Virus record (IMG/VR): IMGVR_UViG_3300007777_000027
Span: 1-21,105 of that record
Length of the DNA: 21,105 nucleotides
DNA from: a virus
Reading direction: 5' to 3' (one strand)
The notes under the pieces are model-generated. The model had not been told where the DNA came from, did not search any database, and worked only from the letters and a program-made list of their open reading frames with translations. Of this stretch, positions 4,007 through 14,767 are shown one piece after another (the stretch's first letter is position 1; each line of letters starts with the position of its first letter). A program made the translations under genes and the position numbers.

Positions 4007-4192
4007 ATGACATCATTATTCGACCAATTCACACAACTTAAAACCACCGACATTCCTAAGGTAAGAGAAGAAATTCTTGAAGAGCAATCTGGTAAATGTG
4101 GGTTGTGCGGCGACGTGATAACCAGTGTTGACGGGATTTCTCTAGACTATCAACACAAGCGCAAGTCAGACCCAATAGGTGTTGATGGCTAA
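4007..4192 (+). pseudogene. Endonuclease VII, 5' fragment (interrupted)
   Basis: 61 aa that match the start of the phage endonuclease VII family (T4 gp49), which resolves branched DNA before packaging. Visible features are CGLCG (first zinc-binding Cys pair, Cys31 and Cys34) and SLDYQHKRK, whose Asp-x-x-His corresponds to the catalytic His region. The frame stops right after GVDG, exactly where the antisense homing endonuclease gene ends; the two stop codons overlap. The second half of the enzyme continues at 5625-5933. The conserved Gly-x-x-Arg-Gly and second Cys that normally follow are absent from both pieces. The first in-frame ATG is at 4007 and has a weak ribosome binding site. It is either a broken gene or half of a split enzyme; loss of codons makes the former likelier. 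Confidence 0.75.
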
Positions 4193-5598
4193 TTTACCAC
4201 GATAACAGATATTTTCTCGTCATTCATCCACACGTTTGGACCTTTTAATTTGTGTATAGGCGTTTTGTCTCCATTACGCAATTGTTCCATGAAAACAGTC
4301 TTACTATATTTCGGGTTGTCTTTAATAAACTTTTCTAAATACCCCATAAATATTATTCTGTTTGATTTCTTTATCTTGACTTTCTTGGTTTTTACTCCAA
4401 CCAAGTCAGACCTAGACTTGAATTCGTCCTTTGTAACACAAACCTTCTCGTCTGTTTCTATGTGCTTTGCAAATACCATATCGTTGGTATTGAATGTTTC
4501 CCTGTGAACCTGACCGTTGCGCCAGGCTGGATTTAAAGACAAGAATTCGTCTTTTAGTGTCTTTGACGTGAAATGTTTCTGTGATATACCATCAGTGACG
4601 ATGTATAAATTATAATCGCCTTTAGGACCTTTCTTTTTCCACCCGGCCTCCACATATTTCTCTAACTCGCATTCCAAAATCCATTTGAACTCATCGTTCT
4701 TAGTTATGGATATTTTATTTTTTACTCCAATATTGACACGACCCAGACGAAAGCCTTTGTGATGTTCAACGTCACGCTTCATTACGCGCTTGTCTTCAAC
4801 CCCGTTCGTTATCCAAGTAAAATTTTTGTTGTGCGAATATCCTATACCCCAACCAGGGTTGTCGCGCAAAAATGACGGTATGTCGTCGATGTTCAGCCGC
4901 TTATCTTTGTTCCCATTTGTTACGTATTTGCTCAATGTCCCGAGCGAATAACGTTCAGTGTTTTCTGTATATCGTGATTTAGGAATATAATAATTTTTTG
5001 TGCCATCGTTCACGTGTACGTGTTTCTCACATCTACCGTACGACCAATCGCTACTACACACTAAAGTCTCCGCGTCCTTACTGTTCATAAGTCGATTTGT
5101 TTTACCATTAGTAACCCATTTCTTCTTATAGTTATTTCCGTGGATATAATCAAGATTGTAGTAGTCTTTAATTGAACCTTCTATTTTATAAAATTCCGGT
5201 TCGTTGCGATACCTACCGAGTATATTTTTGTTATAGTATAACTTATACCCATCTGGTGTCACGTGTAATACATTTCTCTCAATCTGTTCTTTGGCTTCTA
5301 AATACCCCGCGTCGCCCTTTGTGCGGCACAAGTGTAAAATGCTCCGTTTGAAATTGTGTTTTCCGTATTTTGCAATATCTTCAGCTAACCAATCCGATGA
5401 CCCGTAATAATCTCCCCAATCAGACTCAATAGCTATTCTCTTGCCTTTGTGTTTCGTTTTGTTATAGAATGTTTTTTTCCCTATATAATATATCGGCGAG
5501 TCGGAACATTCTAATATATTCAATCGCTCTATGATGTAAACGAACGAATCGAACTCACTCAAAATATCATCAAACAACTCATCCTTATAATACCACAT
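4189..5598 (-). CDS. GIY-YIG-like homing endonuclease inserted in endonuclease VII gene
   Basis: 469 aa, antisense to the gene it interrupts. Residues 19-110 look like a GIY-YIG-type nuclease domain: FVYII, IYYIGKK, a DWGDYYGSS segment, HNFKRSIL and an acidic EAKEQ that could supply the catalytic Glu. The remaining 350 residues form a chain of related modules of roughly 30-40 residues that probably bind DNA (see repeat entry). Nearly the whole insertion is this ORF, leaving no room for an intron. It has its own late-type TATAAATA (5614-5621) and ribosome binding site (AGGAG six bases before ATG). Its codons look more AT-rich than those of the neighbours, consistent with mobile origin. Assignment as a homing endonuclease rests on the domain pattern plus the gene-interrupting position. 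Confidence 0.75.
   Translation of the reverse strand: MWYYKDELFDDILSEFDSFVYIIERLNILECSDSPIYYIGKKTFYNKTKHKGKRIAIESDWGDYYGSSDWLAEDIAKYGKHNFKRSILHLCRTKGDAGYLEAKEQIERNVLHVTPDGYKLYYNKNILGRYRNEPEFYKIEGSIKDYYNLDYIHGNNYKKKWVTNGKTNRLMNSKDAETLVCSSDWSYGRCEKHVHVNDGTKNYYIPKSRYTENTERYSLGTLSKYVTNGNKDKRLNIDDIPSFLRDNPGWGIGYSHNKNFTWITNGVEDKRVMKRDVEHHKGFRLGRVNIGVKNKISITKNDEFKWILECELEKYVEAGWKKKGPKGDYNLYIVTDGISQKHFTSKTLKDEFLSLNPAWRNGQVHRETFNTNDMVFAKHIETDEKVCVTKDEFKSRSDLVGVKTKKVKIKKSNRIIFMGYLEKFIKDNPKYSKTVFMEQLRNGDKTPIHKLKGPNVWMNDEKISVIVVN
4270..5118 (-). repeat. Tandem degenerate protein repeats in the homing endonuclease
   Basis: Within the endonuclease, residues 161-443 contain about eight diverged copies of one module: an aromatic plus V/I-T-N/D-G start, then a basic patch, then a helix-like stretch, ending in G-W/F-x-x-G-R/Y. 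The clearest starts are WVTNG (161), HVNDG (195), YVTNG (225), WITNG (262) and IVTDG (333). Later copies from about 375 and 414 are more degraded. Such modules are typical of DNA-binding tails of phage homing endonucleases. Confidence 0.6.
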
Positions 5599-5613
5599 GC
5601 TAACTCCTTTGTT

Positions 5614-5621
5614 TATTTATA
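5614..5621 (-). promoter_or_regulatory. T4-type late promoter TATAAATA for the homing endonuclease
   Basis: A perfect TATAAATA on the minus strand, 16 bases upstream of the ATG at 5598. It lies in the few bases between the start of the endonuclease gene and the resumption of endonuclease VII coding sequence, so it appears to have travelled with the insertion. The distance leaves a very short leader that still contains the AGGAG. Confidence 0.55.
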
Positions 5622-5624
5622 ACA

Positions 5625-5933
5625 GAATGTAACGTTTGGGAAGGGAAACTATGGAACAACACCGGGCGGTACCGCCAGCCAGAATCTGTGCAAGACAGAA
5701 TCGAGATGTTAGAAGATTTGATTCGGTACTACCAAAAGGGGACGTACGACCTGATACACCCTAGTGAGAAGAAGAAAGAGCCGATAGTGTCAAAAAGTAA
5801 CTACAACCGGTTGAAAAAGGTTTATTCTGGAAAGAAAAAATTCCCAGAGTACCCAAAAAGTAAAAAGCTCACAAAATTACTTGGAGAGCTTTTCGAAGAG
5901 TACAACATTTCACCTTGGAACGGGTTAAAATAA
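5625..5933 (+). pseudogene. Endonuclease VII, 3' fragment
   Basis: Endonuclease VII-like sequence resumes at about 5625 with ECNVWEGKLWNN. In T4 gp49 the corresponding CNAAEG supplies the last zinc Cys and the catalytic Asn62; both are present here. It continues with a leucine-rich helix and YDLIHPSEKKKE, which matches the family's 'IHP' segment, then a basic C-terminal domain. There is no ATG at the start of this piece; the first plausible initiator in frame is GTG at 5688, which would leave out the catalytic Asn. The gene ends two bases before the convergent late-coactivator gene. As it stands this piece is probably not translated as an active enzyme half. Confidence 0.75.
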
Positions 5934-10303: not shown

Positions 10304-10762
10304 TCACGTACAAGATTCGCAAACATATTCATTCGATTCTTTTTGCTGACGTAGATAATAGAACGTTTTGAGACCGTGCTTAAACCCGAATATGTGCAAC
10401 ATAGTCATGTCCTTTAATGAGTCAGGCTTAGCGATGTAAACGTTGACTGATTGGGACTGGTCCAACCACTTCTGACGGACGCAAGCGTTTTTGATGAGCC
10501 CGTATTGGTTACAATCGAACGCTCTCTTGTAGAACTGGTTGTTTTTACGGAAGTTTGGAACCACGGTCGGAACAGTTATCGTGCCCTCTTCCTTGTAAAA
10601 TAAGTCGACCATCGGTTCTGTCGATTCGATGGCGTTAACTGCTTTCCCGCTCGTATTGTGTGACACGCATCCGTTACTTAATTGATACTCGTGCACATCT
10701 TGAACTTCAATATCCCAAGTGTTTTTCAGTTCAGTGTTATCCACTATTTTACTTATTCTCAT
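10304..10762 (-). CDS. nrdA: Ribonucleotide reductase large subunit, C-terminal piece with C-half-intein
   Basis: 152 aa. Residues 1-36 are a C-terminal half-intein ending VSHN; residues 37-152 are the C-terminal extein starting TSGKAVNAIESTEPM, which continues the reductase sequence left off at 11624. The reductase tail is complete: LKTFYYLR holds the paired tyrosines (135, 136) that pass the radical between subunits, and YVCESCT ends the protein with the two shuttle cysteines (148, 151) of class Ia enzymes. It has its own ribosome binding site (GGAGG nine bases before the ATG) and overlaps the upstream 176-aa gene by 14 bases. Translated alone it would be inactive; trans-splicing to the first piece gives the full enzyme. 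Confidence 0.9.
   Translation of the reverse strand: MRISKIVDNTELKNTWDIEVQDVHEYQLSNGCVSHNTSGKAVNAIESTEPMVDLFYKEEGTITVPTVVPNFRKNNQFYKRAFDCNQYGLIKNACVRQKWLDQSQSVNVYIAKPDSLKDMTMLHIFGFKHGLKTFYYLRQQKESNEYVCESCT
10655..10762 (-). other. C-terminal half of a split intein
   Basis: 36 residues. ISKIVDNTELKNTWDIEV followed by HEYQLSNGCVSHN matches intein blocks F and G, with the penultimate His35 and terminal Asn36 needed for Asn cyclisation. The following residue is Thr, an accepted nucleophile for the second splicing step. It starts directly at an ATG, as expected for a free-standing half. Confidence 0.9.
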
Positions 10763-11279
10763 TTTCCCTTTCCTCCGAACATGTTAAATTTTGGTTTGTA
10801 TCAACGTCGTATACTATAATAGTTGAATTTTCAACGTACATTTCGCCTTTCTCAAATACCGTTAACAGTTTACTCGCTAGTTTCTTGTATAACCTTAATT
10901 TCCTTGGTTCGCGAGTGTCAATAAACACGTGGTTAAATTTTATTTTTTTAAGTATGTCGAGAATGGTTCCAAACAGCGTGAGCGTTTCTTTAGTGCTTAA
11001 ATTATTCGTTATCCCAGTGGTCCTCCACTCTCTGTTTCTAAAAACTTCAAACATCACACGCACTGCGTCTTTGTTTCTTTCTATTAAAACGCGGTACTCA
11101 AAATCACTAATTGTTAAATAGTACTCCGTCACGTCGCCGGTTTTAACAACTTTATCAATATTGTATTTAGTGTCGAACGTTTCGCTCAACAAATTTATTT
11201 CTTTTAGTTCCTGCTCTTCTAAATAATTGGTAAAGTTAAAATTATACGACTTCATCAGGTGTTTTCCACGATTTGTCAA
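10749..11279 (-). CDS. Gene lying between the two nrdA halves, unknown function
   Basis: 176 aa from a TTG at 11279, which has a strong GGAGG seven bases upstream and overlaps the first nrdA piece's TGA (TTGA). An ATG at 11255 is an alternative start. The protein has a helical first part (NYLEEQELKEINLLSE), then alternating strands and helices, with FNHVFIDTREPRKLRLYKKL near the C-terminus. That part recalls a widespread phage family of unknown function whose members carry an 'x-E-P-x-R-x-x-L-Y-x-x-L' segment; this is recollection only. No GIY-YIG, HNH, LAGLIDADG or Vsr-like nuclease motif is visible, although the position is where homing endonucleases sit in other fractured genes. The gene looks AT-richer than nrdA. 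Confidence 0.75.
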   Translation of the reverse strand: MTNRGKHLMKSYNFNFTNYLEEQELKEINLLSETFDTKYNIDKVVKTGDVTEYYLTISDFEYRVLIERNKDAVRVMFEVFRNREWRTTGITNNLSTKETLTLFGTILDILKKIKFNHVFIDTREPRKLRLYKKLASKLLTVFEKGEMYVENSTIIVYDVDTNQNLTCSEERENENK

Positions 11280-13636
11280 TCCGACACCTCCACAATATCC
11301 ATGTTTTCTGTAATGTCATTCACCTCAACCCATTTTTCACATCCTGATTCGTCTTTAACTAACAGTTTATGGTTAAGCGTAAACGTGTAAGAATTACCAT
11401 CTTCGAATGTAATTGTTCTAGTTGGTTGTTTACCGTTGAACCAAATTCTAGTTGATTGTTTATCGCCAAATCTTGTTGGGACCGTAATAGGCGAGTCAAA
11501 GTTAAACCACCCTTGTTTTCCTTCGGACTCGATATTATTATGGTCAACACCCTGACGGTCCATTAACTCAGCCAAACTTTCGTTGCCCACATCTGTTTTA
11601 ATAATTGAATCTTTAGTTTGGCAGGCGGTTGGCGCGATAGCCATCAACTGAGCGTTTCTGATACCGAAAGTCTTAACTCTCTGAGCCAACTCGTCCCACT
11701 TGTCCCAATCTATTTCGTAAGATGTTAAATTGAACGCGTTCTTGTTAGCCTTGTGAATCGGTAGAACTCCTTTGGCCCATTCAGTCTCGTAGAACTTCTC
11801 AAATTTACCTTTCTCGATGCTCAACTCGACAGACACAGAGATAATCTTGTAGGACAAGTCGTCAAACAACCGGTCAGTTTCTTCTGCTGCTTCTTGCGTG
11901 TCGATGACGATTCCTTTTAGAGCCAAGTAATTCGCGTAGTTCAAAACACCGATTCCTAAGAAGCGGTACATCATGTTAGAGTTCTTGCCCTCCTTAACCG
12001 GGTAATTGGCCAGGTCGATGGTGTTATCAAGTTGTCTCACTACAGTTCTGATAAGAGCCCATTTCTCGTCCTCTGTCATGTAGAACCATCTCTCGAGATT
12101 GAGAGATGACAAGTTACATAGTGCGATTTCACCAGCTTCGTAACGCTTGATGATTCGTGTGTTCCCATCTTCCATAGTTACCAATTCTTCGTCGATAGCG
12201 ATAGAAGGCCTTGAAGGCAACAGAATCTCAGTGCAAAGATTGGAACTTCCGATATATCGGTTAATCAGTGTTTGGATGTTAACGTTCTCGTCGTGGAACA
12301 AGTAAATATTGCCCGTTTCTGAACGTTCTTTGAAAATCTTAGCCCAAAGCTCTCGGGCCGGTACCGATTTGTGACGCAAGCTAGACTTGTTTTTGTACAT
12401 CTCGTACTTTTCGTTGAACTCTTCGCCGTAAATGCCTAATAACTCAGGAACGTCTTTAGGGTCAAACAAAGCTATGTCCTCGTCGTTAATAACTGCGTCG
12501 ATGAACTTTTCATTCAGTTTGATGCCGTATTGAAGACCACGAGCTCGGTTTTCTTCGGTGCCACCATTAGACTTCAAAGACAAAATGTCTGTCACGTCAG
12601 AGTGCCACCAAGAGAAATAGATACAAAGAGCGCCAGGTCGTTTCCCACCTTGGTTCCAAGCTTTCATGATTTTCTCGTAGAACTGCATGAAAGGAACGGG
12701 GCCACTAGACGTTCCTTGCGTCCCCTCGATATACCCGCCTTTAGCTCTCATTGTTGAAATATCCAGAGCTGTTCCACCCTTGAACTTCGAGTAAATACCT
12801 AAGTTTTTACCGGTGTCCAAAATAGAGTGTGAATCATCAGCTAACGTGTTAAGAACGCAAGATGATAATTGCTGGCCAGGTGTCAAAGCGTTCAACATGA
12901 TAGGAGTAGCTTCAGTGTAATGATGCTGTGAAACTTCGTCGTACATTTCCTGAATTCGTTTTAAACGGTCGACCTCGTTAACCATTAGAGCCATGCAAAC
13001 TCTCATGTACGCGTGTTGAGGCAATTCCAATTTCTTAGTCTTGGAATAATTCAAGCAATACTTGTCGAAAAAAGTCACTAAACCTTTATAGTTAAAAATC
13101 AAGTCTCTATCTGGCTTAATCATCCCGTCAATAGCTTTCAAATCATCGTCAGAATATTTACTGACTGTAGTTTTGTCGTAAATTTTATGGTCAACGCCTT
13201 TCTCTAGCACGGTCGACATAGAAGGATATTGGTCAGCCTTTGAGATGTTGAAAGTCTCTTTGTAAATCGACATCAGCTCTAATTTCGCTGAAACCAATTC
13301 CCAATGAACCGCTATCATAGAAATCTTGTTAACGGCTGTCACTATCAACTGTTGGAACATGTCCTTGATGTTAATTTCCTTGTGCAATTTAATTTCAGTG
13401 TCCTGAATAAGTTCGTCAGCTAACCACTCCTTGTTGTCACAAGCCCACATACAGACCTTTCGGAGCTTTTCTGGGTTGAATGGTTGTCTGCGCCCGTCAC
13501 GTTTGATAATGACGATTCTGTTAGCTTTCATCGCGTCCTGGTTAGAGATGTCAATCTTCTCCCTGGACTCTGCGGCGTTAGAAAGTTCCTCTAGTGATAA
13601 TTTTTTGTAGCGTTTTGCTTGTTGATTTTTTGTCAT
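11276..13636 (-). CDS. nrdA: Ribonucleotide reductase large subunit, N-terminal piece with N-half-intein
   Basis: 786 aa. Residues 40-125 form an ATP-cone (IVIIKRDGRRQPFNPEKLRK) for allosteric control. The catalytic 10-stranded barrel carries the active-site residues of class Ia enzymes: SCVLNT (Cys260, cf. E. coli Cys225), NLCTE (Asn466, Cys468, Glu470) and ALCNLSS (Cys507, cf. Cys462). The reductase sequence stops at MAIAPTA (residue 671), where a half-intein begins at Cys672 and runs to the stop. It reduces ribonucleoside diphosphates to deoxy forms, with nrdB as the partner. The ATG overlaps the nrdB stop (ATGA) and has GGAG five bases before it. The enzyme is incomplete without the piece at 10304-10762. 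Confidence 0.95.
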   Translation of the reverse strand: MTKNQQAKRYKKLSLEELSNAAESREKIDISNQDAMKANRIVIIKRDGRRQPFNPEKLRKVCMWACDNKEWLADELIQDTEIKLHKEINIKDMFQQLIVTAVNKISMIAVHWELVSAKLELMSIYKETFNISKADQYPSMSTVLEKGVDHKIYDKTTVSKYSDDDLKAIDGMIKPDRDLIFNYKGLVTFFDKYCLNYSKTKKLELPQHAYMRVCMALMVNEVDRLKRIQEMYDEVSQHHYTEATPIMLNALTPGQQLSSCVLNTLADDSHSILDTGKNLGIYSKFKGGTALDISTMRAKGGYIEGTQGTSSGPVPFMQFYEKIMKAWNQGGKRPGALCIYFSWWHSDVTDILSLKSNGGTEENRARGLQYGIKLNEKFIDAVINDEDIALFDPKDVPELLGIYGEEFNEKYEMYKNKSSLRHKSVPARELWAKIFKERSETGNIYLFHDENVNIQTLINRYIGSSNLCTEILLPSRPSIAIDEELVTMEDGNTRIIKRYEAGEIALCNLSSLNLERWFYMTEDEKWALIRTVVRQLDNTIDLANYPVKEGKNSNMMYRFLGIGVLNYANYLALKGIVIDTQEAAEETDRLFDDLSYKIISVSVELSIEKGKFEKFYETEWAKGVLPIHKANKNAFNLTSYEIDWDKWDELAQRVKTFGIRNAQLMAIAPTACQTKDSIIKTDVGNESLAELMDRQGVDHNNIESEGKQGWFNFDSPITVPTRFGDKQSTRIWFNGKQPTRTITFEDGNSYTFTLNHKLLVKDESGCEKWVEVNDITENMDIVEVSD
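11279..11623 (-). other. N-terminal half of a split intein
   Basis: Residues 672-786 of the first nrdA piece, 115 residues. It opens with CQTKDSIIKTD (block A, Cys1 nucleophile). Block B is visible as SYTFTLNHKLLV with the Thr-x-x-His pair (intein residues 82 and 85). WVEVNDITENMDIVEV near the end matches the strand pattern just before the usual split position. Endonuclease blocks are absent, and the frame stops where a C-half would otherwise follow. Confidence 0.9.
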
Positions 13637-14742
13637 TCTCTCTCCAACTCTTTAAAGTCTAAAATTAGTTGTCCTGCTGGTATGTCGTTTTTCATGATGC
13701 CGATAGAATAAGCGGCCATGTCAGATTCTTGAAGTGCTGAGTTGTCCTTGTTAATATCTTTGTAAGTTTCGAACCACTGGATGACGTCGGTCTTTTCCTG
13801 GTTGAAAATCTTCGGCTGCGCTAGTTGGGTCGAGCGCAAGTCAACGTAATATTTCAAGAAGTTGTCGATTACTGCTTCCGTCAACGATGGGATGTCTCCG
13901 AAACTCATCAAATACTTAGCGAAGTCCTTCTCGTCTGCGTAACATTCCATCAGTGTTCCCTTAACCATGTCTTGGTACCATTGTGATTTCATGATTTCCG
14001 AGAAACCTTCTGTCGGTTCTTTCTTGAGAGTGCCTAACGTGCCCATTCCCATGTTAGTGTGAACATCTTCGTCAAAGTTAATCAGTTTGATGATACGAGT
14101 AGCGCCCAGAATCTTATTGTTATACGAGTTGTTAACAATATAAGTCACTAAAAATGACACGTAGAACTTGATACCCTCTAGCGCGAAAATACTAACAAGT
14201 AATTCAAGCACTATTTTCTTTTTATCTTCCATCTTCGTAATGGTGTCGATGTTCTTGACTCTCGTGTAAAGGTCAATTTCTTTGTCAATTCGGTGCTGAA
14301 TTTCCGGGTAGTCCTTCAGACGGTCGAAAATTACACTAGCGTCAGGAAAAATTCCACGCAAAAGATGACTATAAGACTTACTGTGGATTAGCTCGAAATA
14401 ACCCCAGGTTTTGAACATAGCCTCGAATTCTGGGTTAGTGCAAAGCTCAGCGACTACTTCTTCTAGTCCTTTGTTCTGTCCCGAGTCCATCAGAGTCTGG
14501 AACAGCCAAACTCTAATCATAATTTCTTGGATGTGTTCCGGTAACTCGAAGAACTTCTGGGAGTCTGATTGCATAGAAATCTCATTAGGGTTCCAAAAAG
14601 CGTTCCGTTGCTTCTCTTCCATGTCTACCGCAAACTGATAAGTCGGGTTGTCATATCGTTGAAACCCAGAATACAGACCAAAGAAAATCTTCTCCTTAGT
14701 CTTGTCAGTTATTAAATCGTTAGTATTAATTAATCGTTCCAT
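13633..14742 (-). CDS. nrdB: Ribonucleotide reductase small subunit
   Basis: 369 aa from the ATG at 14742, which has AAGG five bases upstream; a GTG at 14748 would add two residues. The class Ia small-subunit features are all visible: FELIHSKSYSHLLRGI contains the iron ligands Glu and His plus the radical-bearing Tyr (cf. E. coli Glu115, His118, Tyr122), and NFDEDVHTNMG contains the second Glu and His (cf. Glu238, His241). It forms a diferric-tyrosyl radical cofactor that starts catalysis in the large subunit. It is the first gene of the reductase operon and overlaps nrdA by four bases. A TATAAT promoter and an inverted repeat lie just upstream. Confidence 0.93.
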   Translation of the reverse strand: MERLINTNDLITDKTKEKIFFGLYSGFQRYDNPTYQFAVDMEEKQRNAFWNPNEISMQSDSQKFFELPEHIQEIMIRVWLFQTLMDSGQNKGLEEVVAELCTNPEFEAMFKTWGYFELIHSKSYSHLLRGIFPDASVIFDRLKDYPEIQHRIDKEIDLYTRVKNIDTITKMEDKKKIVLELLVSIFALEGIKFYVSFLVTYIVNNSYNNKILGATRIIKLINFDEDVHTNMGMGTLGTLKKEPTEGFSEIMKSQWYQDMVKGTLMECYADEKDFAKYLMSFGDIPSLTEAVIDNFLKYYVDLRSTQLAQPKIFNQEKTDVIQWFETYKDINKDNSALQESDMAAYSIGIMKNDIPAGQLILDFKELERE

Positions 14743-14767
14743 TGTCACCTTCTTCTAAATATAAGAG

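What the first reader, a model, noticed from the sequence alone, without database searches (positions are those of the whole stretch)
10304..13636. nrdA is a fractured gene rejoined by a split intein
Two separate, differently framed genes encode the reductase large subunit. The first ends in an N-half-intein (Cys672 onwards, blocks A and B visible), the second opens with a C-half-intein ending His-Asn before Thr. Joining APTA to TSGKA gives an uninterrupted 787-aa reductase in which both catalytic cysteines and the C-terminal Tyr-Tyr and Cys-x-x-Cys are present. Fractured genes with split inteins are known from environmental phage sequences, so the principle is established; this particular locus may be a new example and the halves could be a useful new trans-splicing pair.
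Basis: partly seen in the sequence, partly recalled or inferred. Interest (0 to 1): 0.9.

Follow-up and report, generated by a model that had tools for sequence, protein, structure and literature searches.

The report
Phage reductase gene split by trans-intein
A phage's DNA-building-block enzyme is encoded as two separate genes whose ends carry matching halves of a self-splicing protein element that should weld the pieces together; the principle is known, but here the gene between the halves is an unstudied phage protein, not the usual DNA-cutting enzyme.

Summary
On the minus strand nrdA is two genes: 13636-11276 (671-aa extein + 115-aa IntN) and 10762-10304 (36-aa IntC + 116-aa extein). Joined at APTA|TSGKA they give 787 aa, colinear with the uninterrupted NrdA of Vibrio phage pv27 (581/781 identical), with all catalytic residues present. 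The intein halves carry the class-1 residues checked (Cys1, TLNH, His-Asn, +1 Thr). They align to contiguous mini-inteins at the same site in Campylobacter phages, and to split versions at that site in Klebsiella jumbo phages and several IMG/VR contigs. Protein trans-splicing is by far the best explanation; nothing was shown experimentally. It belongs to a widespread, unstudied phage domain family (DUF6934-like, EPSRVKLY motif, GNAT-like predicted fold). In relatives the same slot is empty, or holds an HNH-like, Vsr-like or GIY-YIG gene, so this is an allelic series of one intein site in the RNR phosphate-binding loop. Split inteins and fractured phage RNR genes are known (Dassa 2009), so this is a variant, not a new principle. 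One relative (L047) may carry a naturally three-piece intein.

The parts
13633..14748 (-). nrdB, RNR small subunit; its stop overlaps the nrdA start (one operon)
   Evidence: PF00268 E 4e-41; coordinates
11624..13636 (-). nrdA N-extein, 671 aa (E. coli C225/N437/C439/E441/C462 equivalents)
11276..11623 (-). IntN, 115 aa plus stop: Cys1 and block B T-L-N-H
   Evidence: profile match to solved inteins, weak but several
10749..11279 (-). interposed gene, 176 aa from TTG 11279 (GGAGG 7 nt upstream) or 168 aa from ATG 11255; DUF6934-like phage domain, GNAT-like predicted fold; G+C 0.34 against 0.41 for the window
10655..10762 (-). IntC, 36 aa, ends Ser-His-Asn; strong ribosome-binding site GGAGGAAAGGG just upstream
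10304..10654 (-). nrdA C-extein, 116 aa plus stop, starts Thr; Y-Y and C-x-x-C

Best explanation
The phage RNR large subunit is made as two polypeptides. The first ends in a 115-residue IntN, the second starts with a 36-residue IntC. The halves associate into a HINT fold and trans-splice by the class-1 pathway: Cys1 N-S shift, transfer to Thr+1, Asn cyclisation helped by the penultimate His, then an acyl shift. The product is a seamless 787-aa NrdA. The break lies at the usual C35 split/endonuclease position of inteins; the intein sits in the substrate-phosphate loop (APTA|TSGK). The gene now between the halves is a passenger from a widespread phage domain family, not a recognisable homing endonuclease. 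It was probably acquired, or replaced an earlier endonuclease, after the intein was split. Shown by sequence: anatomy, site, homology, conserved residues, passenger family. Inferred: association, splicing and order of events.
For: Empty site in Vibrio phages, 69% overall in the alignment with pv27 and 581/781 identical after joining. Contiguous mini-intein at the same site in Campylobacter phages PC14/NCTC12673, aligning end to end with IntN+IntC. Split alleles at the same site with the same break: Klebsiella phiKp_21 and KP13-7, L048 (= L011), L049 (= L014), L044, L050, and class II RNR contigs L052 and L054. Against L044 and L047, synonymous sites are saturated (pS 0.77-0.96) while the halves stay 57-69% identical (pN 0.20-0.28), similar to the exteins (pN 0.19-0.24). 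Both downstream genes have ribosome-binding sites and overlap their neighbours. Passenger identity: family profile 24.1 bits against 10.2 for the best of 2000 shuffles; model with a 21-sequence alignment, pLDDT 84.6, best matches mostly GNAT-fold proteins, Z up to 8.7.
Against: No splicing data. The window is one 21-kb IMG/VR record with no independent copy found. Pfam and NCBIfam intein models score below cut-off on these halves, which can happen with split or divergent inteins. Both halves are net acidic (-9 and -3), so the acidic IntN/basic IntC pairing known for DnaE is absent.
Confidence: 0.93

Rival explanations
1. Genes in pieces without splicing: the two NrdA fragments assemble non-covalently, as reported for Aeromonas phage Aeh1 nrdA, and the intein halves are dead remnants.
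For: Aeh1 is a precedent in the same gene (PMC3653736; Friedrich 2007 as cited).
Against: Here unspliced halves would leave 115 and 36 foreign residues in the phosphate-binding loop (E. coli 623|624). Catalytic intein residues and overall IntN/IntC sequence are conserved across lineages with saturated synonymous sites.
Confidence: 0.04
2. Assembly or sequencing artefact: in the real genome the intein is contiguous or absent.
For: Single metagenomic record; Campylobacter relatives have it contiguous.
Against: The split with the same break recurs in isolate genomes (Klebsiella phages, two independent records) and several contigs. The interposed ORF is intact, has a ribosome-binding site, and fits a known phage family.
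Confidence: 0.02
3. Splicing at RNA level by a group I intron carrying the middle gene.
For: Group I introns are common in phage RNR genes.
Against: No Rfam intron match at gathering score in the window. Both ends at the break code for intein residues, so excision is needed at the protein level.
Confidence: 0.01

Closest known systems
Fractured genes with split inteins (Dassa et al. 2009, doi 10.1093/nar/gkp095; paper itself not held, used through and own knowledge)
   Same: Phage DNA-synthesis gene broken by a split intein with an ORF between the halves; nrdA among the hosts (7 nrdA and 2 nrdJ interrupted by inteins in ocean data, as cited in PMC3653736)
   Different: The interposed gene there is a free-standing endonuclease (own knowledge of the paper); here it is a DUF6934/GNAT-like phage protein
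Klebsiella jumbo phages phiKp_21 and KP13-7 nrdA (L008, L003)
   Same: Same insertion site, same break in the intein, one ORF between with short overlaps
   Different: The middle ORF has an HNH/endonuclease VII-like region (phrog_1035 E 5e-4)
NrdA intein of Campylobacter phages NCTC12673/PC14 (and CP220)
   Same: Same site; 50% (IntN) and 49% (C part) identity for PC14
   Different: Contiguous mini-intein, one gene
IMG/VR contig L044
   Same: Closest full-length homologue found (57% IntN); same split intein in a related nrdA
   Different: Only about 24 nt and no gene between halves; nrdA also broken by a second split intein at SNL|C

Membership tests
Class-1 (split) intein | Nucleophilic Cys/Ser at residue 1 | tested here: met
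   C672 of the N gene; Cys in all 12 aligned homologues
Class-1 (split) intein | Block B T-x-x-H | tested here: met
   T-L-N-H; T and H invariant
Class-1 (split) intein | Penultimate His, terminal Asn, +1 Cys/Ser/Thr | tested here: met
   S-H-N|T
Class-1 (split) intein | Halves on separate genes, split near C35 position, exteins join in frame | tested here: met
   IntC 36 aa; spliced 787 aa colinear with pv27 NrdA
Class-1 (split) intein | Splicing activity | not testable with these tools
   Needs co-expression
Fractured gene sensu Dassa 2009 | Enzyme gene broken by split intein, with a gene inserted between halves | tested here: met
Fractured gene sensu Dassa 2009 | Inserted gene is a recognisable free-standing homing endonuclease | tested here: not met
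   No nuclease family in Pfam, PHROGs, NCBIfam; instead member of another phage family. A nuclease of unknown type is not excluded
DUF6934-like (EPSRVKLY) phage domain family | Sequence profile of the family | tested here: met
   24.1 bits against 10.2 best shuffle with a profile built without it; relatives L036 and L034 pass the Pfam DUF6934 cut-off, the window protein itself does not
GNAT acetyltransferase | GNAT fold | tested here: inconclusive
   Model best matches are mostly GNAT fold, Z 8.7 at best, Foldseek E 0.05; acetyl-CoA site not examined

The most novel reading that the evidence does not exclude
Split inteins in essential phage genes act as general docking slots: once the intein is split and both halves are translated separately, the gap can lose its endonuclease and hold unrelated cargo genes at little cost, as the window does with a phage DUF6934-like gene. 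In relatives the same element may even go to three pieces (L047).
Probability: 0.4. Interest if true: 0.65.

Novelty: new variant of a known kind. Interest (0 to 1): 0.52.

Why it matters
It gives a further natural trans-splicing pair, with contiguous, split-empty and split-with-gene relatives at one and the same residue of RNR. That series makes it testable how an intein becomes split, whether the endonuclease is needed to keep it split, and whether a non-endonuclease gene can live in the gap. As a tool, the pair (115 + 36 aa, SHN|T, native flanks APTA/TSGK) would be a candidate addition to the known split inteins; its activity was not measured here.

Tried and rejected
Middle ORF as homing endonuclease: no nuclease family in any library, and family evidence points elsewhere. 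First single-sequence model of it (pLDDT 56) gave mixed fold matches and was set aside for the alignment-based one. Metallo-beta-lactamase and RlmN-like matches of that poor model did not persist and are ignored. Direct searches with the middle ORF found nothing; it took a motif recalled from memory, which led to a real Vibrio phage protein, then to the family. Pfam hit Mt_ATP_synt (E 0.02) is below cut-off and judged chance. A defence-system link was looked for in PADLOC: none for the middle ORF. Bacterial genomes: no relative of IntN found with the patterns used. dN/dS values could not be given because synonymous sites are saturated. The intein tree has weak support at several nodes (35-98), so the number of independent splits or re-fusions was not claimed.

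Full report
What is there. On the minus strand, after nrdB (14748-13633), nrdA occupies two genes. The first, 13636-11276, encodes 786 aa: a 671-aa N-extein and a 115-aa IntN starting at Cys672. The second, 10762-10304, encodes 152 aa: a 36-aa IntC ending Ser-His-Asn and a 116-aa C-extein starting Thr. Between them, in its own frame, lies a 176-codon ORF (11279-10749, TTG start, or ATG at 11255). Its TTG overlaps the IntN stop codon, with GGAGG seven bases upstream, and its 3' end overlaps the IntC start, which has its own strong ribosome-binding site.

The joined extein is 787 aa and aligns without a gap at the junction to the uninterrupted NrdA of Vibrio phage pv27 (581/781 identical). The junction is equivalent to E. 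coli E623|T624, in the substrate phosphate-binding loop (loop role from general knowledge). The radical and redox cysteines, the active-site Asn and Glu and the C-terminal Tyr-Tyr and Cys-x-x-Cys are all present and are divided between the two halves. Neither half carries the full active site.

The intein. IntN and IntC match, end to end, the contiguous mini-intein at the same site in Campylobacter phages PC14 and NCTC12673. A profile of the IntN family reaches solved inteins weakly but repeatedly: an intein of a V-type ATP synthase alpha chain, Mxe GyrA and Pho RadA. Cys1, block B Thr and His, the penultimate His and the terminal Asn are kept throughout. The break leaves a 36-residue C half, which is the usual C35 endonuclease/split position (C35 site: PMC6801210).

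The same site elsewhere. A search of viral contigs and phage genomes turned up an allelic series at this one RNR position. Contiguous: Campylobacter PC14 and CP220, and class II contig L053. Split with no gene between: L044 (about 24 nt), L050/L051 (87 nt), L049 (187 nt), class II contig L052 (97 nt). Split with a gene between: Klebsiella phages phiKp_21 and KP13-7 (HNH/endonuclease VII-like), L048 (a protein whose C-terminal part matches an endonuclease family and reads as Vsr-like), class II contig L054 (GIY-YIG), and the window. No bacterial genome gave a match with the patterns used. The tree is weakly supported, so the number of splitting events is left open.

Selection. Between the window and contigs L044 and L047 synonymous sites are saturated (pS 0.77-0.96), yet IntN and IntC keep 57-69% amino-acid identity with pN 0.20-0.28, much like the exteins (pN 0.19-0.24). 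Dead halves would not be expected to hold sequence this well. Shared descent through recent homing could inflate the similarity somewhat, but the saturated synonymous sites speak against a recent common source.

The middle gene. It has no match in Pfam, NCBIfam or PHROGs above noise. A motif search led to Vibrio phage 207E48.1 (P0007), then to KVP40, nt-1 and Pseudomonas phage PA5oct relatives. A profile of those proteins, built without the window protein, scores it 24.1 bits; the best of 2000 shuffles scores 10.2, and no unrelated ORF comes near. In viral contigs the family is common, sometimes as tandem domains (four at the start of an 1814-aa protein in L026; several adjacent genes in L034). 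Two relatives pass the Pfam DUF6934 cut-off. PA5oct's copy is annotated as a structural protein seen by mass spectrometry. An AlphaFold2 model with 21 sequences (pLDDT 84.6) resembles GNAT-fold proteins best (PanZ/YhhK Z 8.7, 103 residues, rmsd 3.6), although Foldseek alone is not significant. So it is most likely a passenger gene, AT-richer than its surroundings (G+C 0.34 against 0.41). Its function is inferred only as a small phage protein with a GNAT-like fold, possibly virion-associated.

How it most likely works. Ribosomes translate nrdB, nrdA-N, the passenger and nrdA-C from one transcript with overlapping ends (a single transcript is inferred from the overlaps). IntN and IntC pair, fold as a HINT domain and ligate the exteins. 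The passenger stays a separate protein. The split may have been caused by a past endonuclease gene that was lost (as the gap of L044 would suggest) or replaced; which came first cannot be told from these data.

Novelty. Split inteins that mend fractured phage genes, nrdA included, are established (Dassa 2009, cited; that paper itself could not be read here). What differs is the interposed gene: the recognisable free-standing endonuclease that marks those loci was looked for and not found. Hence new variant of a known kind.

Side results. Relatives L044, L047 and L050 carry a second split intein at SNL|C of the same gene, so three polypeptides would have to be joined twice. In L047 the IntN at our site is itself broken after about residue 45, with decayed, endonuclease-like sequence between the parts (my reading), a candidate natural three-piece intein.

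Noticed in passing
window 4007-5933: A second broken gene: an endonuclease VII (gp49-like) gene, uninterrupted in Vibrio phage pv27, is cut in two (about 4007-4192 and 5630-5933, +) by an antisense SegE-like GIY-YIG endonuclease gene (4189-5598, -).
   Followed up: partly
L047 4704-6698: IntN at the same NrdA site lies in two ORFs (about residues 1-45 plus an odd tail, then residues 46-115 behind a new start) followed by IntC: candidate natural three-piece intein, with decayed endonuclease-like sequence between the first two.
   Followed up: partly
L044 1605-5249; L047 1320-6698; L050 3460-6932: nrdA is broken twice by two split inteins (SNL|C and the phosphate-loop site); between the halves of the first are a 542-aa homing endonuclease (L047), a 123-aa ORF (L044) or no gene (L050).
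   Followed up: partly
L026 7043-8752; L034 9881-12451: The family of the middle gene occurs as tandem domains and runs of adjacent genes in phages; most members begin with an L/I-x-E motif near the N-terminus, which might be a prohead-protease or capsid-targeting signal (untested idea).
   Followed up: no
L054 1214-4017: Class II RNR (NrdJ) split by the homologous intein with a GIY-YIG gene between the halves, suggesting that the site allele crosses RNR classes.
   Followed up: partly
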